From positions 8,668,989 through 8,732,988 of the forward strand of contig CAIIXF020000006.1 of the NCBI GenBank assembly GCA_903813345.2: 64,000 bases of DNA. The letters run 5' to 3'. This document shows positions 4,465-59,100 of this stretch, one piece after another. Each line of letters begins with the position of its first letter. Within the stretch, counting starts at the first letter, position 1. A program made the translations under genes and the position numbers. A model generated the notes under the pieces. It searched no databases. It was not told the DNA's origin and was given only the letters and a program-made list of their open reading frames with translations. The DNA is from Owenia fusiformis (lineage: Eukaryota > Annelida > Polychaeta > Sabellida > Oweniidae).

Positions 4465-4536
4465 AGGTTCTAAACAGCAAAGCTACATAGCTTCCTCAGG
4501 ATTTATACAAACTACATAACTATACATTTTTCAATC

Positions 4537-4695
4537 ATGGATTTGAGCGCCATACAGTCAAATCCTATATTAAAGGCAAAATTCAGGAAAATATTTGACC
4601 TGTTTGACATGGACCACGATGGGGTGATAAATGTTGACGATTTGACTTCTATCTGTAAGAAAATGGGCTTTTCTGTCACTGATGGAAAAATAAAG
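4537..4695 (+). CDS. EF-hand gene, alternative first exon A
   Basis: Encodes 53 residues beginning MDLSAIQSNPILKAKFRKIF, with loop DMDHDGVINVDD. Ligand position 12 is Asp instead of the usual Glu, which in EF-hands generally lowers calcium affinity or favours magnesium. The exon ends KIK in phase 0 at a GTGATC donor. It can only join the shared exon at 6751, because exon B has its own start and no coding acceptor. An acceptor-like site (tttttcag at 4464) lies upstream of the ATG, so a leader exon is possible. Confidence 0.72.
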
Positions 4696-16465: not shown

Positions 16466-17460
16466 GGGGTGTTTCATTTTTCAAGAATATTCTCAGCAAA
16501 TTGTGCTGGCAGTGCCGGTGTAAAAGGGGTAGGAGGTCCTATCAAAGTAAGATCCTACTTTCCGTTGATTTATATGGTGACCTAAATACAACTCTCCCTT
16601 ATTATCGTATCCACAATCAGGGCCAGTAAGGGCCTTTAAGAAAGGGGACTATAATCCCAAGGGGATCATGTTTTCTTTTACACCGGTGATGCTTGGAACC
16701 AATATTCCTGTTATAAGGATTTGGAAACACATCAAAACACTATTAATTGATGAAAACTAGAATGTTCTAGCACGTTTTATCGTCTCTGCGATAAGAAGTG
16801 CTAGAACAATCTAGTTTGCATCAATTGAGAGTGTTTTGATATTATTCCCAAATGTTTATAACAGGAAATACGTTATAAAAGTAGTTAAGAAGTGCAAAAC
16901 AAGGTTTTCCACTGAAAAGTGGGCGTCGCCCGCAATGTAATCCAATGGGACGGAAAGAATGACAGACGGACCAGTTTTAACGTTATCCGAATTTGTTAAA
17001 GGGCCGCTGAGAACATTCTTGAAAAATGAAATAACCTGGGACAAACATTGTTGTGCAGCTGATATAAAGATGGCACTACTTAATAATGCTTGTTACCGCT
17101 TACCTTGTGTACCGGTGTGAAAGAAATTATGCTCCCCTGGGGATTATGGTCCCCTTTCTAATCGGCCCTTACTGGCCCTGATTGTGTATAAGATAATAAG
17201 GGAAAGAGTTGTATTTAGGTCACCATATAAATCAATGGAAAGTAGGACCATAATTTGATAGGACCACCTACCCTTTTACACCTGTGTGAAAGAAATGATG
17301 GTCCCCTAGGGATTATGGTCCCCTTTCTTAACGGCCCTTACTGGCCCTGACTGTGTATAAGATAATGAGGGAAAGAGTTGTATTTAGGTCACCATATAAA
17401 TCAATGGAGAGTAGGACCATAATTTGATAGGACCTCCTACCCTCTTACAACGGACTTTCC
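16466..17460. mobile_element. composite foldback element
   Basis: A block at about 16519-16690 (gggccagtaagggcc... and caccggtg) recurs inverted as two tandem copies at about 17112-17285 and 17286-17455. Between them, ATTTTTCAAGAATATTCTC (16474 on) has its inverse near 17035. A central palindrome pairs ATCAAAACACTATTAATTG with CAATTGAGAGTGTTTTGAT around a TTCTAGCAC/GTGCTAGAA core. It lies between RPL28 and the kinase gene. No transposase is visible. Confidence 0.75.
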
Positions 17461-29600: not shown

Positions 29601-32600
29601 AGAATAAAAATTCTTTTTGGGGGTGTCAAAGAGAATGAGAGGGTGAAGTGGGGTGGGGTGCCAGAGGGTGAGCAAGGGATTGTCCCCAAGAAACATTGAC
29701 CATATCAAGGTGCCATTTGATGCCACTTTAAAAATGTCTGAGACAATACATGAAATTCAGAATTTTCTCAATTGTTTTGTGGGGGATGTGAGGCGTGGCA
29801 AACTCTTCTAGAAAATTTTACAATTTTAAGATTATATTTGGTGCTTCTAGGCACTTTTAAAGTGAATGAGTCAATCGAAAAAAAAGAAGAAAAACTATAC
29901 ATTTTTTCAATTTTTTTTTTTGGGGGGGGGGTGTCAAACGGGGGTGCCAGAGGGGGAGGTGGGATTAGGGTGCCAGAGGGGGAGCAAGTGTTTGTCCCCC
30001 ATATCTGTCCCCCAGAAACATTGATCATATCAAGGTGCTATTTGATGAGTCTGGGCACTTAAAAAGTGTCTGAGACAATGCATGAAATAAATTCAGAATT
30101 TTTGTCAATTGTTTTGTGGGGGATGTGAGGGGTGGCCTACTTCCCTAGAAAATTTTACAATTTTAAGATGCTATTTGGTGCTTTCTGGGCACTTTCGAAG
30201 TGTATGACTCAATAAGAAATTTGAAAAAATCACAATATTTTGGGGAATGTCAAAGGGGAGGGGGTGCCAGAGGGAGAGGTGGGATGGGGATGCAAGAGGG
30301 CGAGTAAGTGTTAGTCTCCCAGAATCATTGACTATAACAAGGAGCTATTTGATGATGTCTGGGCACTTTACATGTGTCTGAGACGATACATAAAATAAAT
30401 TCAGAACTTTTCAATTGTTTTGTTTTGGGTGTGAGGGGTGGCCCACTACCCTTAGAAAATTTTACAATTTTAAAACGCTATTTGGTGCTCTCTAGGCACT
30501 TTCAAAGTGTATGAGTCAAATAAAAAATCGAGGAAATCAAAATTCTTTTCAGTTTTTTGGAGGGGTGTCAAGGGGGGGGGGGGGGTGGCAGAGGGGGAGA
30601 TGGGGTGGGGTGGGGATCCCGAAGGGGAGCAAATGTTAGTCCCCCAGAAACATTGACTATATCAAGGAGCTATGTGATGATGTCTGGGCACTTGGGCAGT
30701 TTAAAACTTGGACAATACATAAAATAAATTCAGAATTTTTCCATTGTATTGAGGGGGTGTGAGGGGTGGCCCACTCCCTCTAGAAAATTTTACAATTTTA
30801 AGATGCTATTTGGTGCTTTCTGGGCACTTTAAAAGTGTATGAGACGATGAAAAAGAATTCCAAAAAAAAATTTTTAAACTTTTTTGGGGGGTGTCAAAGG
30901 GGGGTGCGGTCGCACCCATCGCAATGCGCAACGTGAGCAATTACTTTAAAGAAATCAATGAGGAAATAAGGTGCTTAACCTGCATACACACCTCTCTTGG
31001 TTTGTAAGCAGAAAACTATTGCCAAGAGTAGAGATATATTACCCCCATGACCTAAACAGAAGTAACGATAGCAACCATAACTTTTGTGCATTCTCTCACC
31101 AATATGTACCTACACTACATATTCTCAACTATATGTATCTTTTGAAGTACATTCTCTTACCAGTGTATATCTTAAGCATATACTCTCACCAGTGAATGTC
31201 CTCCTCAGACCATACTGTCTCCAGTAGATACCCTCTCCAGTATATACTCTAACTAGTGTGTAACATCATGGGTATACTCTCACACCAGTGTGTATCATCA
31301 GTGATACTCTAACTATTGTGATTATCCTCCTCTATATACTCTCACATGGACGTATCATCATCAGTGTATACTCTCACCAGTAGGTATCCCGATCAGTGTT
31401 TACTCTCACCAGTATGTATCCCGATCAGTGTTTACTCTCACCAGTGCTTATTCCCCACAGTATATACTCTCTCAACTAGTGTATTTCACAATGATAACAC
31501 TCTCACACCAGTGTGTATTTGTATCATCAGTGTATAGTCTCACATGTATGTATCCTCGTGACCCTCGTGAGAATATTCTCACAACAGTGTGTATCATCAC
31601 CAGTGTATACTTGAGTATATACTCACACTTGTGTTTATCCTCCTATTCAGTGTATACTCCCACTAGTGTGAATTGTCATGAGAATACTCTCACACCAGTG
31701 TTTATCATCAGTGTATAGTATGTATCCTCGTGAGAATATTCTCACAACAGCGTGTATCATCACCAGTGTATATCCTATGTTTCAGATTATAACTAACTAA
31801 TTGCATGTATGAATCCTAATCAGAATATTCTTACACCAGTGTGAAACCTCGTCAGTGTATATGTGCTGCATAAAAGTTGTAAACAAAATAACATTGTAGA
31901 AAACTAATATTTCGGAAAATAATTTTTTATGACAAATCCTTCAAAAATATTATTTTCTGTCTCGTAATATTTTTTAGTCATCACTTGTATTTATTCAAGG
32001 GATCTTCATGAAAAATATTTTTCTCACAGATTATACGAAAATAATATTTTTACTTACAAATTTCACAAAATAATACATTCTTACTTATACATTGTACGAT
32101 TCTTACAAATAGTACGCAACATATACTCACGCTGGTGTTTATCCTCTTAAGTAATTACTCTCACCAGTATGTATCCTCCTCGGTTGATACTCTCACCAGT
32201 ATGTATTTTCTTCAGAACATACTCAAATCAGGTGAATCGCGCTGGATCACATCATACTCACACCGTTGTGATTTTAAGCTGGTATTATATACTCATCAAT
32301 GTGTACTAACACCAGGTTTATCCTCCTATGTATATACCTTTCACCAGTGTTATCCTTTCCAGTATATACTCTCGATAACCAGTATATATTTTCATCAGAA
32401 TATACAAAGACCAGATTAAATTCGCATCACCTTATACTCACAACTGACAATACATTACAAAACGTACAGCTTACGCATTCCATATCAATGGTTGGTTTTG
32501 ATTTAATAAATGTTTGAGATTGAATAAATGACGGTAATTTTTAAGGAAAAATTGATTTGTTGATTGTAAGTTACACCCAAGGTAAAATCTACAAACTTTT

Positions 32601-35600: not shown

Positions 35601-38600
35601 AACACCTCGATAACAGTTTCTTACCTCAATCCGTTCCATGGATTATCAACCTCTCCAAAGCATCCATATTATTCAACCGCTCAAACGACGAGTTATCCTT
35701 ATGGACAATCTCAAATATATTGAAATGGTCATGTCGAACTGTGTATATTCACGTGATTCTCTGATTCCAGATAATGCAACTTGTCACAAAAAGTGACAAT
35801 TGTATCAGTAACCTAAACTATCCGTTCATCTGATTCTATTGACCGTTTTTCATGTTGTATGCTTTCAGGAACCTCTTCAGTTTGACCGGGTGATGGACCC
35901 ACAGTTGGCTAAGAATGAATTCCCAACATTCAAGGACGACAACAGGTCCCTCATGCGCAAACATCTCACCAAGGCTTTGTGGGACAAACTCAAAGACCAC
36001 AAGACCAAGACTGCTGGATGGACCCTTGCTCAGGCCATCAACACCGGAGTTGTGAACTCCGATTCACTCGTCGGCTGTCATGCCGGAGATTCAGAATCAT
36101 ACACTGACTTCAAGGAGCTGTTTGACCCCGTCATTGAAGAGTACCACGGCGGGTATGGACCCGAGAGAAAGCACGTAACCGATTTGGACCCAGCTAAACT
36201 GAAGGGAGATATCGAAAAGAAGAGCAATATCAAAAGTACAAGAATTCGATGTGCTCGTAACCTGTTTGGTTTTCCTCTGAACCCAGGGAGCACCAAAGAA
36301 CAGAGACTCCAGATCGAGGAACTCATGAAGAAAGTCTGCGCGGGTCTCACTGGGGACTTGGCCGGTACTTACTACTCAATTGCTAGTATGACAGAAGAGC
36401 AACACAAGCAGCTCGTCGCTGACCATTTCCTTTTCCGTCCCGGAGATCGTTTCCAAGCTGCATCCGCTTATCATAACTACTGGCCCGCTGGTCGAGGCAT
36501 CTTCCATAACAAGGAAAAAACCTTCTTGTTGTGGTTCAACGAGGGTGACCACATCAGAATTATCAGTATGCAGCAGGGAGGCGACGTCAAGGCTGTCTTC
36601 GATCGCTTATGCAGGGGTGTGAAAGCTATCGAGGCCGGTATCTTGAAAAACACAGGGAACAAGCAAGCTTTCCTCTGTGACGACCACTTGGGAATGTTAA
36701 CATGTTGCCCTAGTAACCTCGGCACTGGCCTCAGGGGCGGCGTCCATATCATCCTCCCAACCTTGTTTAAGACCAAAGGACTTAAGGAACTCGATACCTT
36801 GGTGCGTAGCCTAGGATGTCAAGTTAGAGGAACCCATGGAGAGCATACTGAGATCGTTGATACGTGTGATATATCGAACTTCCACCGTATAGGACGTGCC
36901 GAGTATGAGCTGGTACAAAATATGATTGACACAGTCAATCTATTGAATAAAATGGAAGATGAAGAGGCAGCTAAACTTAAGGTATGTAAACTGTGATGTC
37001 CAATACACAATCAGGTGATGGCCATATATGGTAAAGAGAAGTGCATTTGATTATGAAATGCGCATATGATGATGGGATATGGAACGACTACTACAAGGGG
37101 TGGGTATAATCAGCTTATGCCCATACGACTGCATGGTGAATGTAAAGGGGCGTGCATGAAGAGCCAACTAATCCTGCATGTTGTTTTGGGGGATGTGAAC
37201 AGTACGACCAACGAATGTTCATGTCGGACTAAGAGAACGTGGCTTATCACATTTCATCCACCATCCAGAACTACAGACGCATACTATTAGACCAATATCG
37301 ATGCAATGAAGTCTGATTTATGGTTCAATTATTGTCGATGTTGTAGCATTGAGTAAATTGCTTTTGGTTCAGCATGCTGCAACTTATGGACTTTAGCACT
37401 TCGCTTTATTTTACTGATGATTTTTAATCTAAGTTGAGTGGCTAGTGACTGGCAGTGTTCTTCATAACTTCATTTAGTGAAATAACAATTATACCAATGA
37501 ATAATATTAGATGACCAATTTCAACAATGTTCCTCGGGCTAACATAAAATTTCCATTACATACTAAAGTAATCGAGGTATCCATAGACTGATGCATTTGA
37601 TCAAACGTCCATCTTCAAGAATCAATTAAGGGGTATTGAACTAGAATGAGTTATGCATATGGCGTGGTGTACGGCACAGTGGCAATAACTGAAGTTGAAA
37701 TGTCCAAGTTGGCAATCCATTTAGGAGGTTAAGCTACACGTTTTAAGAGAACTTGTACGTTAAACGTGTAATATTATGACTTTCAAGAATGACCACCCCT
37801 TCTAAATTTGTTTTTTCCATGGACCTAATAACAACTATTATTATATACCCAATATGTAACACTAATCCTGATTGGTCAATACCTAGTCACGTGTTCCGAA
37901 ATAGATTTACTATTTCCCTCGGAAAGTTATATTCCCTCAAATGTGACGTCAGCGGGAATATACATTTGAACTATTGCCCGCTGACGTCACAATTGCAAGC
38001 TCTATTACCCTTGGAAACGTCTGCTCATCATCACTGCGCAGACGAAAAACAGAAAAATGGAGGATGAGCACAAACACAAATCAACTCCGTTCACCATGAC
38101 AGACGTGCGTGAACGATACAATATAAGCAACGTGTATAAAGTTCCCTAAGCTCAATACGTCTGTGTTATTTCAAGTGCTATGATAATCTATTCCGCGTGT
38201 TAAACGCGATTGAATTTGCCAAGTGAGAGTCTCAGAGGCAAAAATTTCTGTTGAGCATCTGATGACGTCACAGCTTATAATGCTAACAATGGACCCGGGG
38301 AGGGGGCTTTCTAAGCCTTTTTGGCCTTCGCAGAGGAAACGGGACAAGAGTCAGTATAGGGTATATAATAAAACAAATAGTGACTGCCTAATTTCGAGCA
38401 ATAGTGTAAATGATTTCCCCTTGGGAATATCCTCTACAATATACTATTCCCTCAGCCTGCGGCTTCGGGAATAGTACATTGTAGAGGATATTCCCTCGGG
38501 GAAATAATTTACACTATTGCCCTCAATGGCAGTCACTATTTGTATATTATCATATACCTTCATACTCAGTCCGGCAAGTAAATACTACGAAGGGGAGACT

Positions 38601-41600
38601 CTGGTCTTCTATAGATGAACATAATTCTATACGTCCACCTACAAATTTCTTTAAAACGTGAACCTTAATCTCCATAATAGTAAGACATGAAATGAGACCA
38701 TCAAATAATTTGTCGAACGCTTATCGACAATTCTATCATTATAAATGTTGTTTTGGAAGTTTCTAAGGGAACTTAATAAAGAAATTGCAACCTCCAAGCA
38801 TGGTAAATAGGTTCGTCGTCAATAATTCTTCCTAGGTTATTCAGGACAAATGATGCAGTTGGAGACTAATAGCAATTTATTGATAAAACCAATGAGATGG
38901 AAATGATTCCATGTACGATAAGAATACATCTACGGGGACCTGTCATCCTGTAGTCATCTGTCTATTATCCCCAGTTTGACGTGAATACGTTGGTTGAATA
39001 TGAATCAAATGAGTTGATTGGAACGTTATTGACTTTATTACTAGCTGTACGAATTGTTTTTAAAAAAAAATATTTTGTAATGTTTTTTAAACTTTTAACC
39101 ATTGATTGATTTATTGGTTAATTTGGAGTTTACGTCTTTGATATCAGAGAATAAAAATGATGTTTGGATCCAATTGTTTATGAAATCAGAGCCAATATTA
39201 TTTCAGACGTGGGTAAAACACGTATGTTTACAACCTAAATAAAATAAGGAAATGGTTAACAGCAGCTATGACCTTATAATTACCCCATCCGCTCATCCAC
39301 GTTCATTTCGTGCAAATGTTCCGAAATTATATGTGATACTCCACATCACTGTGATGTTTAAATGAAAATATACTTTCCTTTATCTTGACATAAATTACTA
39401 AGTCATAACGTTACTGAATTGTACCAGAAACTAAAATCCTATTTTTAACCGTGTACGACTGAATCTGCACGGGAATATAGAAAAAATGTTAGAATATCTT
39501 GAATCCATCAAGGTTTTCAAACAATTCAAATGAATAGTCAATCAGAACACTGATAAGGTATTGTGAGAGAGTACAGACTTCAATCAATTCCTTCCTTTCT
39601 AGAATACTGTTAGTTTGAAATTAGAAAGATGCGAGACGTATCAAAATGGTGGTAAGGTCAATACAGTGAACTAGCTATCAGGCTATGGATGGCAGATGGA
39701 GGTCGCATTTGCTTGTTACCTAACCCTGTCATTGTAGTCTTCCATTTTTGTTCAATTTCTATTTTTATACATGTAGAATATGTATCTCTTAGTAAATGGC
39801 AATAACGATATATCCACATGCACAGCAGAAACATGGACTTCTATCGAGAAAGGGGTTAATGATACATCATCCAAAATCACTTATGCATGACAGCTGTCAA
39901 TGTTACCATTACATGTGCAAATGCACCAACATGTGCAGTTTGAAACATTTGAAACAGAATCCTGCCTATGCGACCTTTAAAAACAACAACATATGTATTC
40001 ATCGATAACTTGGTTATTTGTTAATTCGTTTTGTACTTTGTACGCCTTCCATTTTTAAGGTCTCTCCGTCTGCAAAACATTCATTAATGTTGGCTGCTCC
40101 CTAAATAAATATGGAGAAAGGAAGAAATAGTTTTCTCTGCTTTGACTAAAAATAGAAATATGCTGAATATCAGGTTGATATGTTTTACCTTGATACTCAC
40201 ACTCGTATGGGGCCGTTTCAAGGCGTTCAAGGTTTAGTAAGGCGCAAGGTCTACTAAGGCGTGAAGTATACAGTTACACATTAGTTTACAGACGATATTG
40301 ACAATTTAGAAAGTTTTTGTCCAAAAATTAAAACGGACTCCGATAATGCACGAAACAATAACTATCTAAAATTGAGTACAAACGCAAACATATGAGATTG
40401 CCCCAAAGAAAAACATAAGGTATAGTATACCAATGATGTAGCAGTTATGGCAAGATGCTTCTGCTCTCCAAGGGACCGTATAACACAGGTTTAAAAAATT
40501 CGCAATTTTGAGTTGAAAATATTTGCTTGCACTCCTGCATGTATTTCATACATGTACCTGAAAACATTGAAATTACTTTAAAATAATCTAGAATATAAAA
40601 TAACCATTGAAGCTTGAGATTGTTAATGTTTAGTTGTTGAACAGTCACTCTGATTTCCTTACACTTTGCTAGAACAAGTCAAGTATGTATTTTGAGAAAC
40701 AAGTATATCTAAAAATACTTCATTGGATGAGGAATTAGATGGGGGAAATGTCATATGCACTTATAAACACAGCTTATCACCTACATAACATGCCGAATAT
40801 ATAGAACTACTTGGACATTTACATAGAGGTACACATGCAAGCAATAGCCGCTCGTCATCAAACGTCCTGTCTTAATATTTTCATTTTCATTTACTATAAT
40901 TTTGGGATATTAAGTGCGACTCCTCATCTGTCTGTGAGAAGCCAGCTGCAATATACAGGGTGTCAATAAAGTATCTTTAAAATTACAATACTAAGTCTGT
41001 GTAACGTGTCAAGACACTTTATGGACACCCTGGCACTAAAATCAAGCGCTTTACGTGTGTTTATAGTTTCCTAATTTAGGGCCTTTTTAGTTTGTACACC
41101 CTCCATAAGTTTGGCAAATGGACGTTTCCATTGGACATCATGTTAAAAATCTTAAATTTCTGACTGGGTGCCAAATGATATAAGCAGGCTTTATACACTT
41201 GGTGAAAAGGGGAGACTTCCAACTACCAACCTTTTGGAGGGGAGTGTATGTCTCTTCAGCGGTCTCTATCTGTTTATCATCAATTCTCAGGCTTTTCTTC
41301 AGACTTTTTTGGGTTCCGGGATTTTCTTCCATTTCACACTTGAATAAAGCCTGATTGTCAGTGATTGTAAAAAGCTCTCTGGAACAGATTCTGAATCTGT
41401 ATGGACATTATGGGTCTGCATGGCATGGATATGCAAATGCTTTTTCAAATACCCGATAATCTTGAATTCTTGGGTGTATCACTATATCGATACAACGTAA
41501 CACTTCCCTAAATAGTTGTAAAATTATGCGATAACTTATTCTATACTTTTTGGCCCCCCATATGATATTCACACATAAAAAAGCTTAATCGAGCAATGAA

Positions 41601-42907
41601 AAAGTTCCATAAAGTTACACTCCCCTCCACAAGTTTGGCAACCAAAAGTTTTTATTGGATAGCTTATCAAATGCTGACAATGTTTGAATCTTAATTTTGT
41701 TCCTTAATTGCAATAGTTTAGATATTTGATATTTTAAAACCGCCAAACATAAACAAGCTTTGATAAGTGATCCAAAAAGGGGACTTCCAGTTGCCAAATT
41801 GATGACGGGGAGTGTATCTAATACGTGACTGTTATCTTGAATATCAATCTCTTTAAGCCAAATGTAAAGGTCCCCTGGCCCCCATCTAACATCATTATTA
41901 TGTTTTACTGTAAATCGATATAGTGATACGGTCCCTTACTTCGTTTTACTAATAAAGTGATGCCACATAATACAATTTCTCCCAAAAATAAACGCTATCT
42001 GGTTAATTACAAAACAGTTTGCCGGAAATTGGATCCTTGCTATCTTAGATCTGAGACTAAAATGAGGTATGTTAGTCTCAGCTTAGATCCACAGATCGGA
42101 CTATATTCTATAAAAAAGAAAAGAGTTGAAGCAGATTCATGCTTTCAAAAGTTTTCAAATGTTTCTTTTCAAAAGTTGTACAAAAGTTCTCAAAAGTTTT
42201 AGAGTGCGTTGGGCTCATACCAATTCTTGACCTACCTGTATTCTATAAATTACAAATTCATATTGATTATCGATTTTTTCATTTATTTTACAATTTTGTT
42301 CTAAATAAACGATTTTACTCATTTTACCACCCAGTCTGAAATACATTTATCATTCGTTGAGATAGCATGGATCTTTCAAGATAAGATATAGGTATTTGAG
42401 GTAAAGAATACATTGGAAGGTCAATTGTACACGCCGCTTTGCACTTTGTTCACACCATATTTCTGATTGCACCTTTAACTCAAGACTTTAACTCAAACTT
42501 TTCATTGTATTCCCCAGGATGTAAGAATTACCTTGTAATCATTCCGTTTACTCAGAATTCAATCTCATTTTCAACACAAGGAGATAATTTTTGGCAAGTG
42601 GAAATCTAATTCAGGCTTCTATCTCACCGTGAAATATTATTCTTTTGGTTCTTCCCTAAATCCAGTCTATGTGATAAAGGTTTTTCATTTATTTGATTAA
42701 GTTGATTCCCAAAAGTAAAAAAACTGGATATATTCCTGGGGAATACATGAAGGATTAAATTAACGATCTGTTGAGATTCTTACTAACATTGTGTTTCTTG
42801 TTTAACAGGAATCATGGTCCATACGACGAGTTGCTTTAACCCTTGCCGCTCCTCTGTCTTTAGTTCTTATAGCAGCCATTGCCAGAAAAATCAACAAATT
42901 ATGGTAG
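20668..42907 (+). CDS. phosphagen (arginine-type) kinase, tail-anchored, alternative N-termini
   Basis: The core exon 35869-36981 encodes 371 residues of a complete ATP:guanido phosphotransferase, which regenerates ATP from a phosphagen. The active-site signature is CPSNLGTG (core residue C280). The specificity loop before VG is 8 residues (VNSDSLVG), the length seen in arginine kinase and 4 shorter than in creatine kinase. Tyr in EYHGG and Glu in RGTHGEHTE are also arginine-kinase-type. GCHAGDSESYTDFKELFDPV is more creatine-kinase-like, so the gene may be an arginine kinase of the creatine-kinase branch. The usual NEEDH reads NEGDH. The 5' end joins in phase 0 to exon 20668-20679 or 32946-33005. 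The 3' end joins in phase 0 to 42809-42907, a hydrophobic tail. The 32946 form would be 423 residues. Substrate is inferred only. Confidence 0.9.
22786..24045. repeat. 60-bp tandem repeats in a 271-bp higher-order array
   Basis: The proximal part is a loose array of units such as CAGTCTATGGCACAG. From 23281 an exact 60-bp unit repeats. A 271-bp block starting near 23190 is repeated almost identically from about 23461 and partly again near 23730. It lies in the first kinase intron and has no coding evidence. Confidence 0.9.
24913..25433. mobile_element. TA-flanked foldback MITE
   Basis: Ends CAGGGTGGTCAAAAA and TTTTTGACCACCCTG with TA on both sides. The arms extend imperfectly inward for about 200 bp (for example GTTATGTAATGCTGTACAGC and its inverse near 25290), leaving a short unique centre. 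This is a Tc1/mariner-type non-autonomous element in the kinase intron. Confidence 0.8.
26252..26953. mobile_element. 700-bp foldback element
   Basis: The outer arms AAAGGAGTGGTATCGATA and its inverse TACCGATACCACTCCTTT end the element. A second inverted pair (AATGTCTTTCCGAACC with GGTTCGGAAAGATG) lies inside, followed by pairing near CCTCTCAATATT/AATATTGAGAG. It is non-coding. Confidence 0.75.
29585..30915. repeat. G-rich satellite, about 320-bp units
   Basis: Four to five imperfect copies of a unit of 305-340 bp. Each carries 'CAATTGTTTTG.GGGG.TGTGAGGGGTGGCC', 'TAGAAAATTTTACAATTTTAA' and a long G-rich stretch of the type GTGCCAGAGGGGGAG. Strand asymmetry is strong: the plus strand has runs of up to 14 G. 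It lies in the kinase intron. Confidence 0.9.
31130..32420. repeat. degenerate CTCACCAGTGTGTAT repeat field
   Basis: Dozens of imperfect units containing TATACTCTCACCAGTGTG and TATCCTC, spaced about 25-40 bases. They are interrupted at 31870-32110 by AT-rich sequence with repeated AAAATAATATTTTT-like motifs. This is an old, diverged minisatellite. Confidence 0.85.
32946..33005 (+). CDS. kinase alternative first exon 1b (MGTCIKQ)
   Basis: Encodes 20 residues starting MGTCIKQSTK and ending NANIT, with a purine at -3 and G at +4. The donor is ACG/GTAAGA in phase 0, matching the core exon. Gly2 and Cys4 near the start suggest possible lipidation, as in MGC-type kinases and flagellar creatine kinases. 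However, Lys occupies the position where N-myristoyltransferase prefers a small residue, so this is weak. Confidence 0.6.
34318..34356. repeat. GT microsatellite and G14 run
   Basis: An interrupted TG repeat (GTGTGTGTGTTTGTGTGTG) runs directly into a stretch of consecutive G, in the kinase intron before the core exon. Confidence 0.85.
35869..36981 (+). CDS. kinase core exon
   Basis: A single 1113-base exon carries the whole N- and C-terminal phosphagen kinase domains, from EPLQFDRVMD to EDEEAAKLK. Its acceptor is GCTTTCAG and its donor AAG/GTATGT. ATP-binding arginines are visible in TRIRCAR, HIRIISM and RGTHGEH. The codons are richer in G and C than the flanking introns, as expected for a highly expressed gene. 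Residue 226 of this exon (36544-36546, GGT) is Gly where the family has Glu. Confidence 0.96.
37942..37991. promoter_or_regulatory. inverted pair of CRE-type TGACGTCA sites
   Basis: TGTGACGTCAGCGGG and its exact inverse CCCGCTGACGTCACA face each other across 20 bases. A third TGACGTCA lies at 38263-38270. TGACGTCA is the CREB/ATF consensus. The symmetric layout may only reflect a MITE arm, so a regulatory role is inference. Confidence 0.4.
38348..38572. mobile_element. near-perfect palindromic foldback
   Basis: Arms of about 105 bp (including AAATAGTGACTGCC, CAATAGTGTAAAT and GGGAATATCCTCTACA) pair with their inverse around a short centre at about 38450-38465. It lies in the last kinase intron. 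Confidence 0.8.
40956..41032. mobile_element. 77-bp mini-MITE
   Basis: Ends CAGGGTGTCAATAAAGT and ACTTTATGGACACCCTG, preceded by TA. It is one of several elements here with CAGGG/CCCTG ends. Confidence 0.65.
41100..41814. mobile_element. pair of related foldback repeats
   Basis: About 41100-41250 and 41618-41814 each begin with a CCTCCA.AAGTTTGGCAA motif and end with an inverted relative (GCCAA....GGGGAGTGTA). They are two diverged copies of one family in the last kinase intron. Confidence 0.55.
42809..42907 (+). CDS. kinase last exon encoding a C-terminal membrane anchor
   Basis: The acceptor TTTAACAG is followed, in the phase required by the core exon, by 32 codons and TAG. The peptide is ESWSIRR, then an 18-residue uncharged hydrophobic segment (VALTLAAPLSLVLIAAIA), then RKINKLW. 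One hydrophobic helix bounded by basic residues at the extreme C-terminus is the form of a tail-anchored protein. The basic end suggests an outer mitochondrial, peroxisomal or ER membrane. The 5.8-kb intron leaves room for other exons. Confidence 0.72.
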   Translation, partial: ESWSIRRVALTLAAPLSLVLIAAIARKINKLW

Positions 42908-43224: not shown

Positions 43225-44215
43225 GGCTGGAACAATATACAAGGGTGTGGCAATATACAGGGTCTTTGGCATACACAGAGGCTTGGGGCAATATATATGA
43301 GGTGTGGTAATATACTTGGTCTTTGGCATACACAGAGGCTTGGGGCAATATATATGGGGTGTGGTAATATACTGGGTCTTTGGAATACACAGAGGCTTGG
43401 GGCAATATATATGGGGTGTGGTAATATACTGGGTCTTTGGAATACACAGAGGCTTGGGGCAATATATATGGGGTGTGGTAATATACTGGGTCTTTGGCAT
43501 ACACAGAGGCTTGGGGCAATATATATGGGGTGTGGTAATATGCTGGGTCTTTGGCATACACAGAGGCTTGGGGCAATATATATGGGGTGTGGTAATATAC
43601 TGGGTCTTTGGAATACACAGAGGCTTGGGGCAATATATATGATGTGTGGTAATATACTGGGTCTTTGGCATACACAGAGGCTTGGGGCAATATATATGGG
43701 GTGTGGTAATATACTGGGTCTTTGGAATACTCAGAGGCTTGGGGCAATATATATGGGGTGTGGTAATATACTGGGTCTTTGGAATACACAGAGGCTTGGG
43801 GCAATATATATGATGTGTGGTAATATACTGGGTCTTTGACAAACACAGAGGCTTGGGGCAATATATATGGGGTGTGGTAATATGCTGGGTCTTTGGCATA
43901 CACAGAGGCTTGGGGCAATATATATGGGGTGTGGTAATATGCTGGGTCTTTGGCATACACAGAGGCTTGGGGCAATATATATGGGGTGTGGTAATATGCT
44001 GGGTCTTTGGCATACACAGAGGGTTGGGGCAATATATATGGGGTGTGGTAATATGCTGGGTCTTTGGCATACACAGAGGCTTGGGGCAATATATATGGGG
44101 TGTGGTAATATACTGGGTCTTTGGAATACACAGAGGCTTGGGGCAATATATATGAGGTGTGGTAATATACGGGGGATGGGGCAGTATATAGGGAGTAGGG
44201 AAATATACAAGGTGA
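43225..44215. repeat. 57-bp minisatellite downstream of the kinase anchor exon
   Basis: About 17 copies of a 57-bp unit (GGGCAATATATATGGGGTGT and following). The unit is a multiple of three, so several frames on both strands stay open; the longest is a 368-codon minus-strand frame with 19-residue repeats such as PKTQHITTPHIYCPKPL. No signal, domain or splice context supports coding. A diverged remnant lies at 44470-44585. Confidence 0.95.
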
Positions 44216-50104: not shown

Positions 50105-53100
50105 CTGCAATTATAAGATATAATTACTTTCAGGAAGTTTTAATAAAAACGTATACATGTGTGAAACATATAGTGATCTACCTTGAAATAAAACAAACAG
50201 GCACTGTACTGAAAATTGCATTGGACCCTGGGTTGTGGATATGCAAAAATCAGAAAATTTGAATTAAATGTTGACCTTTTTAGTGGAAATTGACTTTACA
50301 TTAAGATCATACCTACTGAAATAAAAGTCAATAATTTTCAGGAAAAAATTGACTTTACAAAATATCATAGAAATTGAAGTAAATTAGAACCATTTTTGTA
50401 GAAACTGACATAACATGAGATAAACTATTAAAATAAACAACATACAATTATTTTATGACACTGGGACCTCATCAGGACATGATTCTATCACTTTTATGAG
50501 GTTGTTGTCATTGCCTCAAACTCGATGCACCAATAGTAGCAGATAATCAAATTATTCTAATTGCCAATTGTTTCATCAATTAATTAACTTAAGTCTATAG
50601 TAGTCCATGGGCCAATAACAACAACATTAACAATACCATTGCACTACAAGTTTAACCAAAACATTGACACTATATCCAAAATAAACATGGATTGTAGAAT
50701 TTTATGGATACTTCTTCAGGTTCTTGCAACTGGTTTATTTTCAGATGAAAAAGAAATAAATATATCAAATGTACAAGAAACAAAGGATGAGCTTCAGGAG
50801 GATGAACTGAAAGTAATGTTCAATAGTGAAGATGATGAAAAAGGGATTAAAGGGATCAATGGAAATATTGAGGCAAAATCAAAAGTGGCAAAGATAAGGG
50901 ACTCTGGGACAGGAGTCAGTGTATGGTACAATAACACAAACATTGTACCACTAGCACGCAAAAGAAAAGTATACAAACGGCTCACAAAGGACCTAGAGAT
51001 GTTTCTGCATGGTCAGCGTTTACGCGATCGGCTTGAAGTTTGGAAAACTTTGGCAATCATGCAAAAAATTATTGCCACCATTATGGGGCGCCCAGAGAGT
51101 AGGTTTAATGTGGAAGAAAGTGACCTCTATGAAGGGGATGTTGTACTCAGAGTTGAAGATCTTTTAGATGAGGTCCATAACCTTGAAGAGAACTTTGAAA
51201 TAATTGCTTCTTCAGTTACTAGAAAATTTGAAACATCCCAGACTGACCCAATAGATAATGCAAGGAATGAGCTGAAAAAATTGAAACAACGACTTCAAAG
51301 ACGAAGCCAAAAGCACTCATCATCAATGCGCAGAAACAAGAGATCAATACTAACAAAGAATTCTCCAAGGAAGAGAGTGTACACCTACAGAATCTCAAAG
51401 AGTTATAACACCAGTGAAACAGATCGTATTGTACAAGGCATGGTGGGGTGGGCAAACCATACTTGCCTCTCTTTCAAACCATGGGTTAGAGGGAAAAAAC
51501 TGGATCTGTTTTTCTTCAGAGGGAGAAAATGTAGCTCCCCTATTGGAGTAAAGGGTACCAACAGGATCAGCTTGGATACAGGGTGTCTCACACCTGGCTT
51601 GATTCAACACGAAATAGGGCATTCTCTAGGTCTGATACACCAACATAGTCGGCCTGATCGTAACACACATATTAAAATTTTATTTTCCAGAATTCGTCAC
51701 AAGTTATCTCCATTTGTAAAAAGCTCATGGACACGTACAAATCCTTTCGGTGTTCCGTATGATTTATCCAGTGTCATGCACTACCCATCTGCTGCATTTG
51801 GAATCTCGCCAAGAACCATCACCATGGAGACAATTGATAAGGAAAAGAGGGGAGTTATTGGTCAAAGAAATGGGATAAGTTTCTGGGATGCCCGAGTGAT
51901 TAACATGTACTATTGCTCCAACCAATGTGTTGTAGGAGGCCTAGATGCTGGGGACTGTAATAACTATGGTTATCTCCACCCTGGCAATTGCCAGATTTGT
52001 CTTTGCCAGGATGGATGGTCAGGGACTAGATGCTCTAGCATACAAGAAGGCTCACCAGAACCATGTGGTGGGGAGGTAGTTGCTATGGAACAACCACAAT
52101 TCCTTAACTCCCCTGGCTTCAATCAAACTAACTACACACATGGTCAGCAATGCAGCTGGCTTATTACTACAACCCCTGGTGATGTCATTTTGATGAAATT
52201 TATTGACAATTTTGGCATCATCCCACCACAAGGCACACGAGTGCGAACATGTGAGGACTATGTAGAAATCAGATACAAACATCTCGCAACTGTTGGACCA
52301 AGATTTTGTGGGAGTACAAGACCAACACAGATATTTATATCTCACAGCAACAGAGTGATGGTTCTCTTCAGGGCCAACAACCCTATCACCACCTCAGGGG
52401 ACCAGGGGTTCAAGCTGGAGTACACCAGGGTCAGGTGTGGCGGTTGCACAAGTACTCTCCCAATTTCTCAGCCTGTTTGCCAAAGGACAACACAACATGA
52501 CTGCTCGGTTCAGGTCAGATATGCTTCACAATTTAATTTCAAGATCTATAGGCAAACTAGCAAAATAAAATTGAAACAATTGAAATGCATAACTATACAA
52601 CCACATTTGTGCTTGAGGCAAATAATAACTGATAACATGTTTCTTTTTATATTTTTAAAATGTAAATATATTTTATTACTTGTAAAAATTCAAGAACTGT
52701 TGAATAAATAATTTTATACATGTAGATTTAAAACTACATGTGTCTATTTGACTTAAAAATCTTGATAAGAGGTAGTAAAGCAATGTTCTCCATGAGGCAA
52801 TAATGAGCTATGATATTTTCCACTCGGATACAAGTAGCACTACAGACTTTAAACCTAAACCAACCTATTTTAAATGTGGAGAATCTTCAAGTCGATGATT
52901 TGTTCTTTTACATTAATTACAGGTGTCAAGGAAACTAACGAGGCAGAACACATGTTTCAAGAAAAACACTTTTTGCTGTACTGGATTCACCCAAACTAAC
53001 AACAATACAATGTGTACCAAGTCAAAACCAATTGGGCAATGGAGCCAATGGGGAGCCTGGAGCGATTGTACAGAATCATGTGGTGGCTGTGGGGCCAGGA

Positions 53101-56100
53101 GCAGGAGACGTGGGTGTATCAGTGGTGCCCTCTGTGTGGGTACCTCCATGGAGACAGGGGCGTGTAATACGAAGGTTTGCCTAGAGGCGGTAAGGCAAGA
53201 GAGCTTCTTGTGTTCATTCCTTGTTAGGAGGCGTCGTAGGGGAAGGAGGCCTAGGTTTGTCACTAGGTATAGGATGTGTGTTAGAGATAGCATGTGTTGT
53301 GAAGCAGCACCCAACAACATTGCTGGCATATGTACGCCATAACATTATGTTACTCACTTTTTATAACGCATTATAAACATTTGTTTTTTTGTTCATTCTA
53401 CCTAGGAATAGAAGGTATTTTACCTACATTTTCCCAATGTACAGAGCATGTTGTGATTTTTGTGGGCTTATTATGTCGATTATATTCCAAAAGTTAGAGC
53501 TGTCTTAATACTTATCCAGAGTCTTTGTTTCTACCGATCAGTCTGAGGAGAACATCTATATGGTCAAAGAAAAAGCAGCCATCCCAATTTCGATATAAAA
53601 AAATTATTATCTCCTATACTTCATTTATTTTATAAATATAGTCTACATATAGGTATATACATATATTTAGACTTATATGATGAATGTTGTTCTGTTGAAT
53701 AAAATGCTGGGCTTGAACAGTTACTATATTGAACATCAGGCCATAGCTTAACCTGTAGTTCTTCCATGTTTTAAGATACTTCTGGGTTTTGAATAATCCC
53801 ATGCATTGGGATTTTACTTTTTGACACCATTTCATTTTCATAGATTGAAATGTTTTCAGATACATCTCTCATGAGCTTCATTTGGGGGTTACGCACTTTT
53901 AATGGTCTATGTGATAGTACTTTGACATCAGCATATATTTAAAGGTGTCACTTACCTCGGAATGTGCCTGCTTTATCACTGAACTTGCCACTAGGGGGAG
54001 CATATATTTTCCTGTCTTGTTGTTTAGATATCTTATTTTTGCTTTCTGAGTCAAATGTCACTGGTGTTATATTTGATCGCTTTTGCCTGAAAAATAAAAA
54101 ACATTGTTATATGTTTTACATGAACACTTATGGTTGGCTCCTAGATCAGAATTCAGAATGTTAATGTTTTTTTACGTACATGTATCAAACATTGTGAATA
54201 ACTAAGTTATATCTTATTTCACTTAGAGCACTTAGAGTTTGCCTTTTCTTGCTAAGTTCCATTACAACTTTTGGTCCTTTCCCTATATTATATATTCACA
54301 TCTCAGATGATGACAGCATGATAATAATCCATATTTTGATAATAAGGCTATGTTTTATACCCTTATTAACTTTTAATATATGAATTTCTTAGGTTATCCC
54401 TGAACCCCTGTAGTTAAACCTGTGTGTAGTGAAAGGCTAAACTCACCCTGTGGCTGGTGTAGGAGAAGCTGCAGGTTTCTGAAAGAAAACAAAGTTTTAA
54501 TGAAAGTCTCTTCAGAAAAAGACAGCATCACTTTATTTAAATCTGAACTGTTGAAATTCTAACTAAATACTGAAAATGCAACATAAGTATTACCATTTCT
54601 ATAGTTTCAATGTACCCGAGCCAAAATTTCAGTAGTAAAGTGGACATGTGGTGGGAAGTCATTTATTTTGGGGAGAGCACATAGGAGAGATCCACTATCC
54701 ACGCCTGTTTCTCCATTCCATAGGTGAACATACAAAAGCACTAACATAATATTTAACAAACTGGGTAGAAGGTACTTACCATTGGTTTCCATGAGAGATG
54801 TAAGACAGCCTTGTATGAAGGTGGATTGTGGAACAAGTCTTTGATCAAAGTGTTAATGTTGGATGTAATTTTAAGTGCTATCACCTTTAGTTTATTCTGA
54901 AAGAAAATTTCAAAACTTTTAAGTACAGTGGCAAAAGGGGAAATCCTATAAGTTATAAAGAATCAACGAAAATAGAACAAAATCAATTATGAAAACCAAA
55001 AATATTTGAAATAGATGAACATAAATAAACAAAGAGATAATGAACTCCAACTATAATTGCAGTTGATTCTATATTTAATAGTCAGTAATTTTACAGAACA
55101 CTTTATTTAACATCTAAATTTGGATACAAATGGATATCAAATCACTAATCAAGCAACTTGTTTGGTACCAAATATCCTTTCAGAAATCAAATTCTTTAAA
55201 ACGTTTTCAGCTGAGAGTACATCTAATAAATCAACTCATCAGTTTTAATTACTGAGGACAGATTTAAAGATTCTCTTTCATAAGATACCACTCACCTCAT
55301 CAGTTTTTAGAGCATCTCCAGTTTTTCCTTGTAGAGCCATTCTCAGCTGCTTAATGTAAAGTTGTAATCCCCTAGCAAAGTACTGTAACCTGGAAATAAA
55401 ACAAAATAGCAAATTAATATATTGGCCAATGCAGAGAGACATATTTAGCCATGTTGTCACATACAATCATGAAAATCATGTAATATAATCCTTCTCTTTT
55501 GCTTAATTGATGAATTTACAAAATTTGAAGTCAATACACTTTGAGAAAATAAGATTAAATTGTGTGGTTGTTACAACTGGTGGGCTCACACTGCACACAG
55601 TGAAAAAATGCCAAATGAAAAAAACAAAAAGTAGGAGCTGGAACCAATGGTATAAACTACCAGTATGAATCCCATAAAATGAACATGGGCATTTGATAAA
55701 TGGCAGTTTCCATTTGTTTGAAAAATTCTTGTTGGATGAGAGATCAAATCTCTATGGTTACCATATGAGCCAAAACAAAAATCCTTTAGAAAAACAATAG
55801 CAGTAGTGCCCGTTGTATTTATGTTTACCTGATTCTGAAATCCTTTAACCTCTCCCCATTATCTTCGCCTGTGAGGAACTCAGGATGTCGCCTGGCTATC
55901 TGATGGAAGGCATACATCAAACATTCAACATAAGAGAACTCAAGTTTGGGGGCTTCCACAGGGGCACTGTTTTCTTCCTCTGGGGGCTGTGGCATGTAGT
56001 CCTGAAGGAAACATGGACAAATTAAAGACATTACAAATGGCATTGGTTTTCTTATATGTTTTGTTTTTAAGAGCCTTCTTGTAAATGTACAGCATCCAGA

Positions 56101-59100
56101 ATTATGACAATACATTTGAAACAATAAAGACGCTGAATACTAAGAAAATTAATACATGTATAGGTGTGAAGGATTTACAACTAACCTGACAGTTTTTAGA
56201 TTCACACGTTTAACATGAATATGATTTAGAATTGTTAAACTCTGTAAACGCATGAATATCAGAATAAATAAAACGATTCTTTAGTAGATCAAATCCCCCA
56301 TTAAATAAATATTATTTGACAAGCTGACACATTACAATTACTTCAAACTGTTCTGGTCAACAACATGGCCGATCTCAGCTGATCAACAACATGGCCAATC
56401 TCAATAAAGTTGTCCACAACATGGCAAATCTTAATCGAATTGTCAACATGGCCAATCTTAATCGAATTGTCAACAACATGACCAATCTTAAAAGAATTGT
56501 CAACAACATGGCCAATCTTAAAAGAATTGTCAATAACATGGCCAATCTTAATAGAATTGTCAACAACATGGCCAATCTCAATAAAGTTGTCCACAACATG
56601 GCAAATCTCAAAAGAGTCATCAACAACATGGCAAATCTCAATAGATCAACAACATGGCCAATCTCAACAGAGCATGTTTATATAGAACCTAGTCAACCTA
56701 CCAACAATTTATCAAAAACACGCTGCACTTTTTCAATTCCATCTTCTAACTCTCCAGCATTAGTGGACATTTCAGCAAATAGTTTGAGAATCTCTAACTT
56801 GAGATCAGTCCCCTCAGCTTGGTTTTCAATACTACTTAAAGATGGCAGCACTTGGTCACATATGTATGAGACGAATGCTGCTGAGTGCACATTTTTCTGA
56901 AAAAAGAGAATGTTTTATAAAATATACATTTTTTATTCACAGTATAGATATAATTTATCATCTTAATTGAAAACTGGGTTGCTAAGTTACTAAATGAGTA
57001 ACATTTTTTTCAGAAAAATATCACTCAAGTCACATGATAAAGTCAGAGGGAAAGATTTGCCTAATTCACCTATTTGAAAATCCTGGCTAATTGGAATTAA
57101 AACTGAATTGAACGATTCTGATCAAGCATATCAAGGTACTATTGAAAACAGGTATGTCATATTGTATTGCACTTGAAAGTTGAGAAAGTGGTCACTACTT
57201 ACTGAGAAAAATGGCATTGCTTGCCTTATACATTGCATCAGTCTGTCAACACAGTCACTGTCTGTTGGCTGAAATACAAAAATGTAAATTCAAATATTTG
57301 ATGCAATGTTTAATCATGTTGGCAGTAAAATAAATAAACAAAGAAACCTGAATGACACATTTTGAGTACTTCTTCTCAATTCGAATATGATACGTGATGT
57401 CACAATAGCTCCAACAATTGATTTACTGGTGTATATTAAAGTATGTATGACCCCTAAAATTCATAAATGCAAATAGTTGTGTTTCTTATCTATTTATCAT
57501 ATCAGAATCGTAATAAAGACCGAGATTTTATGATTCATGGCAAATATTATGACCTCAAACCTTATTCTGACCATTGCCAAAGACTTCAATCACTATGTGA
57601 TTTCGGTGTTTTAACAATGAACAGAATGAAATTTTCAGTCATATATTACACCATAAATCATACAATCTCGGTCTTTATTCCTAAATATAAAAAGTTACTA
57701 AAGATTCAAAATGTCATAATAAAATGTCCAAAGATGTGGTACTTTAGATCAACTGGTTCACACAAAAGTATGTGAATGTCATATGACTATACAGAGATAT
57801 TCAATGCCCAAATATAATGAAAGGCTTTTGAAAGGTCAAAATAAAGGCTTTTGAAAGGTCAAAATCAAGGCTTTATATATCTTGATTTGAAAACTTCCGT
57901 CGATTGTAAAACCTGGACAAATACACATGTATGTAACTACTCACCTGGAATTCTTCTTTGAGACTCGCCTGTTCGACTACGATCTCCACCAACTGTTGTC
58001 GACCAATTACTGTATTAATTGATGTAAGACTTGAGAGAATTTTCATAAAAGATACAAACTCATCACCCGTTACGTCGTCAAATACCTACAACACATGAAA
58101 CAGACATTATCAAACAAGGCATTAACTTGCAAAATGTCACTACCTGCCATTTGTTACAGACACCAACCAGCGATTGCCATTTGTTACAGATGTCAACCGC
58201 CGAGCGGACACCATCCACAAAAAAGTTTAAGACAATAACATATTGGTTTTTATGTCAGATGGCCAAATTGTGAGGTGGACGGAATATTTGGGGTGGGCAC
58301 AATACAGGTTGAGGTGGGCCCTGCACAATGAAAGAACCCCCTGGGGAGATCATAGCACTTTTCCAAATAATAATGAGAGATATAATGAAATGTTTACCTT
58401 TTTACATTCACTTAGAAAGTATTCCTCGATATCTTTATTGAAGATTTCATCGACAGATTTCTTCATCCTATTCTCCATAAACTTTATGGCCCTTTCTCTG
58501 ACTATATCTTCACCATTGTTAATCTGGGAGAATAGACCAGTCAAAGTACCTGAAATGTCATATCGAGTATAAGCTGTCTATCATTTGAATACTACACATC
58601 AATGTTTTAAGTAACATGAAAATATTCCCTGCATCTTTAGTTCTTTCCTTATCTTGGTGTAAAAAAACAAGCCAAAATACTACTTAATCAAGAAATGTTA
58701 GCAGAAAAAACAACTAAAATTGTGACACTTTTTCAAAAAGTTTCCATCAATTGGACTTCATTGCCACTTTAATCCACTTAAAGTGCTCATGCAACACTTA
58801 ACAATATTCCAAATTGGGATTTGTTAATAAAGACTTAGTAATAGAAATCCTGTACTGAGACTGAAAGGCATACCTTTCACATCTATCTTCATAAGCACCA
58901 TGAGGGAGCTCTGCACTAGGGATAGCTCCATGGAGTCCTCACATTGGAGTAGTTGACTTAGGACATCTGCTATCCTGGGGACATGCTCTTTGGCATCCTT
59001 ACAAAGTCCTGGTAGGTCCTTGATAGCCTGTTTTCTGATCTAAAATCAAAGTGATTTTTGAATTCGAGTACTAGTATCGTGCACAGGAGTTTCAGTATCA

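What the first reader, a model, noticed from the sequence alone, without database searches (positions are those of the whole stretch)
42809..42907. Arginine-type kinase with a predicted C-terminal membrane anchor
The core kinase exon splices in frame to a last exon coding for an 18-residue hydrophobic helix bounded by basic residues, ending three codons' length from KINKLW. Phosphagen kinases are normally soluble, or peripheral through lipids or lipid binding. A tail anchor would place ATP regeneration on a specific membrane, for example beside a pump or on the mitochondrial outer face. I know of no described tail-anchored phosphagen kinase.
Basis: partly seen in the sequence, partly recalled or inferred. 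Interest (0 to 1): 0.85.

Follow-up and report, generated by a model that had tools for sequence, protein, structure and literature searches.

The report
Tail-anchored, possibly disarmed arginine-kinase relative
An animal gene for a relative of arginine kinase appears to end in a spliced-on membrane anchor, and it has also lost the glutamate that normally holds the substrate, so it may be a membrane-bound sensor or weak enzyme rather than an ordinary energy-buffering kinase; transcripts are needed to prove it.

Summary
The kinase core (35893-36981) ends at AAG|GTATGT, the best of 57 GTs between 35893 and 37000, and joins in phase 0 to 42809-42907 behind a good acceptor, giving ESWSIRRVALTLAAPLSLVLIAAIARKINKLW*. 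It is the only one of 135 acceptor-like + strand sites giving such a tail (- strand 0 of 168; resampled sequence 3 of 38,197, none with basic flanks). No second copy of either exon was found in the 498-Mb genome. Splicing is unproven: no transcripts or animal relatives were available, codon usage is uninformative, and read-through gives a plausible soluble end. Nucleotide arginines, Cys271, Glu314 and arginine-type Tyr89 remain. "ATP regeneration at a membrane" is therefore doubtful. Best reading: a tail-anchored, catalytically altered phosphagen-kinase relative, a new variant of a known kind. An arginine-kinase domain elsewhere in the genome ends -KKSSSCVLI*, resembling a prenylation motif.

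The parts
35869..35892 (+). Start of the core exon before the Met, behind an acceptor-like site (TATGCTTTCAG) at 35868/35869; suggests an upstream exon, which was not identified
   Evidence: sequence
35893..36981 (+). Core exon: 363 residues, ATP:guanido phosphotransferase N and C domains in one exon
   Evidence: Pfam PF02807 and PF00217 over cut-off; AlphaFold2 model mean pLDDT 85.8, pTM 0.87; Foldseek top hits are creatine and arginine kinases
36067..36081 (+). Guanidino-specificity residues L59-H63 (LVGCH); His63 is at the place of Tyr68, Leu59 at the place of Gly64 (Gly64 itself varies among relatives)
   Evidence: Tyr68 contact with arginine seen in passages of PMC5598448 and PMC12387690
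36544..36546 (+). Codon GGT, Gly218, at the place of Glu225 of arginine kinase
   Evidence: Glu in 30 of 30 other rows
36982..36987 (+). Donor site GTATGT
   Evidence: best of 57 GTs between 35893 and 37000; 12 of 3,480 on the + strand score as high, itself included
36994..36996 (+). TGA stop used if the intron is not removed (protein then ends ...KLKVCKL, 367 residues from the Met)
36982..42808 (+). Proposed last intron, 5,827 bases; no Pfam match over cut-off in the six open frames tested, of nine of 70 or more residues inside it
   Evidence: one weak match, thiamin pyrophosphokinase, E 0.19, 12.1 bits against a cut-off of 30.7
42809..42907 (+). Proposed last exon: ESWSIRR-VALTLAAPLSLVLIAAIA-RKINKLW-stop, tail anchor
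   Evidence: no second copy found in the genome

Best explanation
The gene makes a tail-anchored member of the ATP:guanido phosphotransferase (phosphagen kinase) family. An intronless core, probably an old retrocopy or otherwise intron-depleted copy, is spliced to a last exon that adds a short linker and one C-terminal transmembrane helix. The protein would be inserted after translation, with the kinase on the cytosolic face of an organelle membrane, most likely the mitochondrial outer membrane, with peroxisome or ER possible. The last helix of the kinase (residues 337-362 of the model) runs almost directly into the anchor, so the kinase would sit against the membrane. The residue that clamps the guanidino group, Glu225, is Gly, while the nucleotide-binding arginines are kept. 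It is therefore more likely a weak or altered enzyme, or an ATP/ADP- or guanidine-binding membrane protein, than a standard ATP-regenerating arginine kinase. Shown: sequence, frame, splice-site quality, residue changes. Inferred: splicing, membrane insertion, organelle, reduced catalysis, retrocopy origin.
For: Exact in-frame junction and tail. Donor is the best of 57 in and just after the core and lies within the score range of 14 donors of the same genome. The acceptor has 75% pyrimidines, CAG and no AG in the 15 bases before it; of 40 acceptor-like sites between 37030 and 50500 the next most hydrophobic tail has KD 1.75 against 2.45. Null test 3 of 38,197, none with basic flanks. No core segment above KD 0.86. 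No second copy of either exon found. 63 of 69 near-invariant family columns kept, so the core does not look decayed; Glu225 is changed while Arg124/126/229/280/309, Cys271 and Glu314 are kept (which residues bind nucleotide is recalled). Confident fold, last helix ending at the junction. Glu225 forms an ionic contact with the guanidino group (passages of PMC5598448, and PMC12387690), and its equivalent in human uMtCK is called the catalytic base (passages of PMC5133464).
Against: No transcript evidence, and no animal relatives could be searched; the tail peptide was found once in the genome. The read-through end ...EEAAKLKVCKL* resembles the plain end EREKELEAAKV* of a paralog. Synonymous codon usage of the tail is at the non-coding level (58% of 2,569 non-coding windows score as high), though 10%, 17% and 36% of windows of three held-out coding sequences score as low. 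Exon GC of 42% is reached by 13% of intron windows. Poly(A) signals do not discriminate: the first lies about 1.4 kb after either stop. On the altered-catalysis part: the window is not unusually degraded, with 6 of 69 conserved columns broken, while bacterial row L032 breaks 10 of 71 and has Glu225.
Confidence: 0.55

Rival explanations
1. Tail-anchored and fully active: the changed residues are tolerated, or adapt the enzyme to another guanidino substrate, and the protein regenerates ATP at a membrane.
For: Cys271, Glu314 and the arginines are kept. Tyr84 stands at arginine kinase position 89, which by my own mapping is the specificity position called residue 95 of Danio CK in PMC3836730 (passages), where Tyr is arginine-type. 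From memory, Glu225 mutants of arginine kinase keep some activity (Pruett et al. 2003, not read; PMC5598448 cites it for substrate alignment).
Against: Glu225 is Glu in 30 of 30 rows, including taurocyamine and creatine kinases. Its equivalent is called indispensable in human uMtCK. Long branch, 1.28.
Confidence: 0.17
2. No tail: the exon is not used. The mRNA reads through the donor-like site and ends at TGA 36994-36996, giving a soluble but divergent phosphagen-kinase relative of 367 residues; the hydrophobic frame at 42809 is coincidence or belongs elsewhere.
For: The read-through end looks natural beside the paralog ending EAAKV*. Intronless phosphagen kinases exist in this genome (MtCK at C10:18524105). 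Codon usage of the tail is uninformative. The listings and passages I saw show no phosphagen kinase with such a tail, and a nematode arginine kinase is reported to lack a transmembrane domain (PMC5485575, passage).
Against: Strong donor at the very end of the core, good acceptor, matching phase, and a tail rarely produced by chance in the null test.
Confidence: 0.18
3. Composite terminal exon: both ends are made. Splicing gives the anchored form, and intron retention with polyadenylation inside the intron gives the soluble form ...KVCKL*, a switch between soluble and membrane pools.
For: Both ends are open and plausible; a poly(A) signal lies about 1.4 kb after each stop. A splice isoform of the kinase DMPK carries a tail anchor (PMC2778554, abstract).
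Against: No direct evidence for either 3' end.
Confidence: 0.07
4. The intron is real but another last or internal exon follows, so the true C-terminus is different.
For: 40 acceptor-like sites lie between 37030 and 50500; 12 of them, the one at 42809 included, give tails of 18 or more residues.
Against: Apart from the one at 42809, none of the listed tails is strongly hydrophobic. No Pfam match over cut-off in six of nine open frames of 70 or more residues in the intron; shorter exons were not tested.
Confidence: 0.03

Closest known systems
Arginine kinase (tick, shrimp, Anthopleura; bacterial arginine kinases, mostly Campylobacterota)
   Same: Both Pfam domains; 40-49% identity to 16 bacterial arginine kinases and 49% to the tick enzyme; short guanidino-specificity region; Tyr at position 89; Cys271, Glu314
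   Different: Glu225 to Gly, Tyr68 to His; proposed C-terminal anchor; long branch
Mitochondrial and cytosolic creatine kinases of the same genome
   Same: Family and fold; 43% identity to MtCK; weak grouping in the tree (86/75)
   Different: Lacks the creatine-type insertion (PGHPFIK); GEHTE instead of GGVDT loop; Tyr not Arg at position 89. MtCK uses an N-terminal presequence and binds lipid peripherally (recalled)
Drosophila ArgK1 mitochondrial isoforms
   Same: Arginine kinase brought to mitochondria by an alternatively used terminal exon (passages of PMC13215054)
   Different: N-terminal signal, not a C-terminal anchor; catalytic exon shared by all isoforms
Trypanosoma brucei flagellar arginine kinase AK3
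   Same: Arginine kinase isoform with an added targeting sequence, found at the flagellar membrane (passages of PMC4517888)
   Different: N-terminal extension resembling acylated calflagins; no C-terminal anchor mentioned in the passages seen
Tail-anchored enzymes: DMPK A, FALDH
   Same: Cytosolic enzyme placed on an organelle by a C-terminal helix; FALDH has ER and peroxisomal forms differing in tail (PMC2778554 abstract; PMC5450235 passages)
   Different: Unrelated enzyme folds

Membership tests
ATP:guanido phosphotransferase (phosphagen kinase) family | N-terminal and C-terminal domains and fold of the family | tested here: met
   PF02807 E 7.4e-25 and PF00217 E 5.4e-66, both over cut-off; Foldseek top three 4z9m, 1p50 and 1bg0, TM 0.84-0.86 by query length
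ATP:guanido phosphotransferase (phosphagen kinase) family | Nucleotide-binding arginines (124, 126, 229, 280, 309; list recalled) and reactive Cys271 | tested here: met
   conserved in the window and in all 30 other rows
ATP:guanido phosphotransferase (phosphagen kinase) family | Invariant catalytic Glu225 (Glu232 in CK) | tested here: not met
   Gly218; Glu in 30 of 30 other rows
Arginine kinase | Short guanidino-specificity region | tested here: met
   lacks the insertion seen in the creatine kinase row
Arginine kinase | Tyr at position 89 (specificity position; mapping to residue 95 of Danio CK is mine) | tested here: met
   Tyr84; Tyr in 27 of 30 other rows, Arg in the 3 creatine kinase rows
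Arginine kinase | Tyr68 contacting the substrate | tested here: not met
   His63; Tyr in 25 of 30 other rows, which are all 25 arginine-kinase rows; Val in 3 CK and Arg in 2 TK rows
Arginine kinase | Glu314 in the GEHTE loop | tested here: met
Arginine kinase | Phosphorylates arginine | not testable with these tools
   needs an enzyme assay
Tail-anchored membrane protein | Single hydrophobic helix at the extreme C-terminus with a short tail, none elsewhere | tested here: met
   in the spliced model: segment 371-388 of 395, KD 2.45; core maximum 0.86. Holds only if the exon is used and no upstream coding exon adds a signal
Tail-anchored membrane protein | Last exon spliced to the kinase in mRNA | tested here: inconclusive
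   splice sites, phase and null test support it; codon usage does not; no transcripts
Tail-anchored membrane protein | Post-translational membrane insertion, N-terminus cytosolic | not testable with these tools
   needs localisation and protease protection
Mitochondrial outer-membrane tail anchors | Moderate hydrophobicity with moderate positive tail charge | tested here: inconclusive
   net tail charge +3; best KD mean 2.45 for 18, 1.89 for 20, 1.76 for 22 residues; the mammalian rules seen in PMC5450235 do not settle the organelle

The most novel reading that the evidence does not exclude
A tail-anchored pseudo-phosphagen kinase: a membrane-integral member of the family that has given up the guanidinium-holding glutamate but kept its nucleotide site, and serves on an organelle surface as an ATP/ADP (or guanidino compound) sensor or as a docking partner for the active arginine or creatine kinases of the same cell.
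Probability: 0.33. Interest if true: 0.75.

Novelty: new variant of a known kind. Interest (0 to 1): 0.58.

Why it matters
Phosphagen kinases are treated as soluble or peripherally bound energy buffers. An integral membrane form would fix the phosphagen system, or a sensor derived from it, to one organelle surface and would make local energy buffering easy to test. A member lacking the conserved substrate glutamate would also be a natural test of how essential that residue is, and a candidate pseudoenzyme of this family.

Tried and rejected
Rejected: that the tail is part of a repeat or mobile element (one match each; that search can miss copies in masked or very common sequence); that the core is itself a membrane protein (maximum KD 0.86); that the core is a decayed pseudogene (363 open codons, 63 of 69 near-invariant columns kept; the six broken are D114K, L170I, L195Q, E225G, A281G and G345T in arginine-kinase numbering); that Gly218 is a one-base error for Glu (GGT differs from GAA and GAG at two bases; inference from the code).

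Led nowhere: codon usage of the tail exon; GC content; poly(A) signals, AATAAA and ATTAAA only; placement in a tree (long branch, long-branch warning); the window protein alone against prokaryote contigs (22 pattern matches, no relative), then an alignment (19 loci, all with bacterial titles). The organism was not identified.

Literature: ten searches of one open-access library. For a tail-anchored phosphagen kinase: one search gave 1 paper, in whose passages 'arginine kinase' refers to bacterial McsB; one search gave 4 and one search gave 7 papers, all listed, none of whose titles or abstract starts describe one. Of these eleven rows I looked inside two: one reports no transmembrane domain in a nematode arginine kinase, the other holds the term only in a reference. 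Searches returned 489 and 466 papers on loose terms, of which 20 and 15 were listed, none about phosphagen kinases. For an inactive member: one search gave 204 papers, 15 listed; the one arginine kinase paper with 'catalytically inactive' means an open conformation. A review of phosphagen-kinase structures has no 'membrane' or 'transmembrane' in the held main text (PMC12467219). Most subscription papers are not in the library, so this is weak evidence of absence.

Rows dropped: L034 (truncated before position 225) was left out, so 18 of 19 bacterial loci were used; L020, L028 and L034 were left out of the structure alignment, so 16 of 19. The cytosolic CK row ends before position 314. Control: nine of the 30 other rows were scored the same way and broke 0 to 10 conserved columns.

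Mended on rechecking: bacterial identity range (40-49%, not 43-49%), number of open frames tested in the intron (six of nine), and the taurocyamine-kinase argument, which concerned position 89, not 68.

Full report
What was checked. The open frame 35812-36996 holds a complete phosphagen-kinase core starting at Met 35893. Pfam finds both family domains, and the closest solved proteins are arginine, taurocyamine and creatine kinases. The core exon ends in AAG|GTATGT at 36981/36982. Joined to 42809 in phase 0 it gives a 395-residue protein ending ESWSIRRVALTLAAPLSLVLIAAIARKINKLW. Without splicing it stops at 36994-36996 after VCKL. An acceptor-like site at 35868/35869, 24 bases before the Met, suggests an upstream exon, which I did not identify.

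Is it more than chance. I built a donor matrix from 14 donors read by eye in three arginine-kinase domains of the same genome. The window donor scores 9.85, inside their range of 6.4-12.6; it is the best of 57 GTs between 35893 and 37000, and 12 of 3,480 GTs on the + strand, itself included, score as high. The acceptor has 75% pyrimidines and no AG in the 15 bases before it. Between 37030 and 50500 there are 40 acceptor-like sites; 12 give tails of 18 or more residues, and the one at 42809 gives the most hydrophobic by far (2.45 against 1.75 for the next). Over the window, 1 of 135 acceptor-like sites on the + strand and 0 of 168 on the - strand meet the tail criterion; in 300 resampled windows 3 of 38,197 do, and none with basic residues on both sides. 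The criterion was set after the tail was known, so these numbers are a guide, not a formal probability. No second copy of either exon was found in the 498-Mb assembly.

What speaks against it. There are no transcripts, and the genome library holds no animal relative. Synonymous codon choice in the tail is no more coding-like than non-coding sequence, in a test of low power. The read-through ending EEAAKLKVCKL is close to the ending ELEAAKV of a paralog at C1:48.499M. I therefore keep about one chance in five for a plain soluble protein.

I aligned the core with 30 other rows: five kinases of the same genome, 18 bacterial arginine kinases and seven PDB rows. All 30 have Glu at position 225 (arginine-kinase numbering, set by the tick enzyme 7re6); the window has Gly218, codon GGT at 36544-36546. 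Tyr68 is His63; the other 25 arginine-kinase rows have Tyr. Gly64 is Leu59, but Gly64 itself is Gly in only 16 of 30 rows. Arg124, 126, 229, 280 and 309, Cys271 and Glu314 are kept, and 63 of 69 near-invariant columns overall. Tyr84 keeps the arginine-type residue at position 89, where the three creatine kinase rows have Arg. In arginine kinase Glu225 forms an ionic contact with the guanidino group and Tyr68 contacts the other end of arginine (passages of PMC5598448, and PMC12387690). The equivalent Glu227 of human uMtCK is described as the catalytic base (passages of PMC5133464). I recall, but did not read, that mutants of Glu225 keep part of their activity, so loss of function is likely but not certain. 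As a control, one bacterial row (L032) breaks more conserved columns than the window, 10 of 71, and still has Glu225.

Structure and origin. An AlphaFold2 model with 16 bacterial relatives has mean pLDDT 85.8 and pTM 0.87; its last helix spans residues 337-362 and so ends at the splice junction. Foldseek matches it to creatine and arginine kinases, TM 0.84-0.86 by query length for the top three. The core has no introns, whereas the arginine-kinase paralogs at C1:14.81-14.83M and C1:48.499M are split into several exons; the mitochondrial creatine kinase of this genome is also intronless. Retroposition is the simplest reading, not proven. The tree leaves the window kinase on a long branch (1.28) beside creatine kinases with 86/75 support and a long-branch warning. 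Identity is 40-49% to the 16 bacterial rows, at most 49% in the tree set (tick arginine kinase), and 43-45% to four kinase rows of its own genome.

How it would work. Tail-anchored proteins are sorted by helix hydrophobicity and tail charge. In mammals a highly charged tail favours peroxisomes, a smaller charge mitochondria, and a hydrophobic helix with low charge the ER (passages of PMC5450235). Here net tail charge is +3 and mean hydrophobicity is 2.45 for 18 residues or 1.76-1.91 for 20-22. I favour the mitochondrial outer membrane, with peroxisome and ER open. Precedents for placing an enzyme by a variable end exist: DMPK A (PMC2778554, abstract), FALDH forms (PMC5450235, passages), Drosophila ArgK1 reaching mitochondria through an N-terminal exon (PMC13215054, passages) and Trypanosoma AK3 with an N-terminal extension (PMC4517888, passages). 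Arabidopsis G6PD5 is recruited to the ER by N-terminally extended splice forms (PMC9478949, abstract).

Novelty. Ten searches of an open-access library showed no tail-anchored or inactive phosphagen kinase in the listings and passages seen; several lists were capped and most papers were not opened (details under tried and rejected). I call it a new variant of a known kind.

Verdict. A tail-anchored relative of arginine kinase with a changed active site is the best reading (0.55). Tail-anchored with full activity gets 0.17, no tail 0.18, both ends made 0.07, another last exon 0.03. A transcript check should come first.

Side finding. In the same genome the second arginine-kinase domain of the cluster at C1:14.81-14.83M ends GEKVGEKKSSSCVLI-stop, which looks like a polybasic stretch with a CaaX prenylation motif (motif recalled, not tested; a further intron was not excluded). 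If real, two phosphagen-kinase relatives in one animal carry two different C-terminal membrane signals.

Noticed in passing
L009:2589-2813 (also in L014), second arginine-kinase domain at G000 C1:14.832M: Last exon ends ...MEKKLESGEKVGEKKSSSCVLI-stop: a polybasic run plus a CaaX-like box, suggesting a prenylated, membrane-bound arginine kinase.
   Followed up: partly
L012, downstream of the first arginine-kinase domain (C1:14814083-14814226): A phase-0 intron seems to follow the end of the kinase domain, then an acidic Ala/Glu-rich exon (ASSEGTAEPEEAAPAAEAAV...); possibly the linker of a two-domain arginine kinase.
   Followed up: partly
L003/L004, G000 C1:48609722-48611917: Intronless mitochondrial creatine kinase with a truncated tandem copy (open frame of 322 codons) beside it; a further full intronless copy on C10:18524105 (L002).
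   Followed up: no
window 35893-36981 against L016-L033: The window kinase is as close to bacterial arginine kinases (up to 49%) as to tick arginine kinase (49%), and a little closer than to four kinase rows of its own genome (43-45%); origin not resolved.
   Followed up: partly
window 43243-44174: 57-bp tandem array, 16.4 copies, 96% matches, starting 336 bases after the proposed stop, so it may lie in the 3' UTR; it creates long spurious open frames on both strands.
   Followed up: no
window 38391-38527: Long hairpin inside the proposed intron: 67-nt arms, 87% complementary, 3 nt between them; might be a small mobile element.
   Followed up: no
window 9820-10652, 17111-17453, 23026-23949, 30007-30842, 56383-56671, 59142-59341: Other tandem arrays (42 bp x 20; 169 bp x 2; 60-271 bp nested; 307 bp x 2.6; 30/90 bp; 21/41 bp).
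   Followed up: no
window 50588-53344 (+), 56693-59926 (-), 4474-6382 (+), 14322-15253 (+): Neighbouring genes by Pfam: astacin protease with CUB and a nearby TSP1 domain, API5 exons, two EF-hand frames, ribosomal protein L28e exons.
   Followed up: partly
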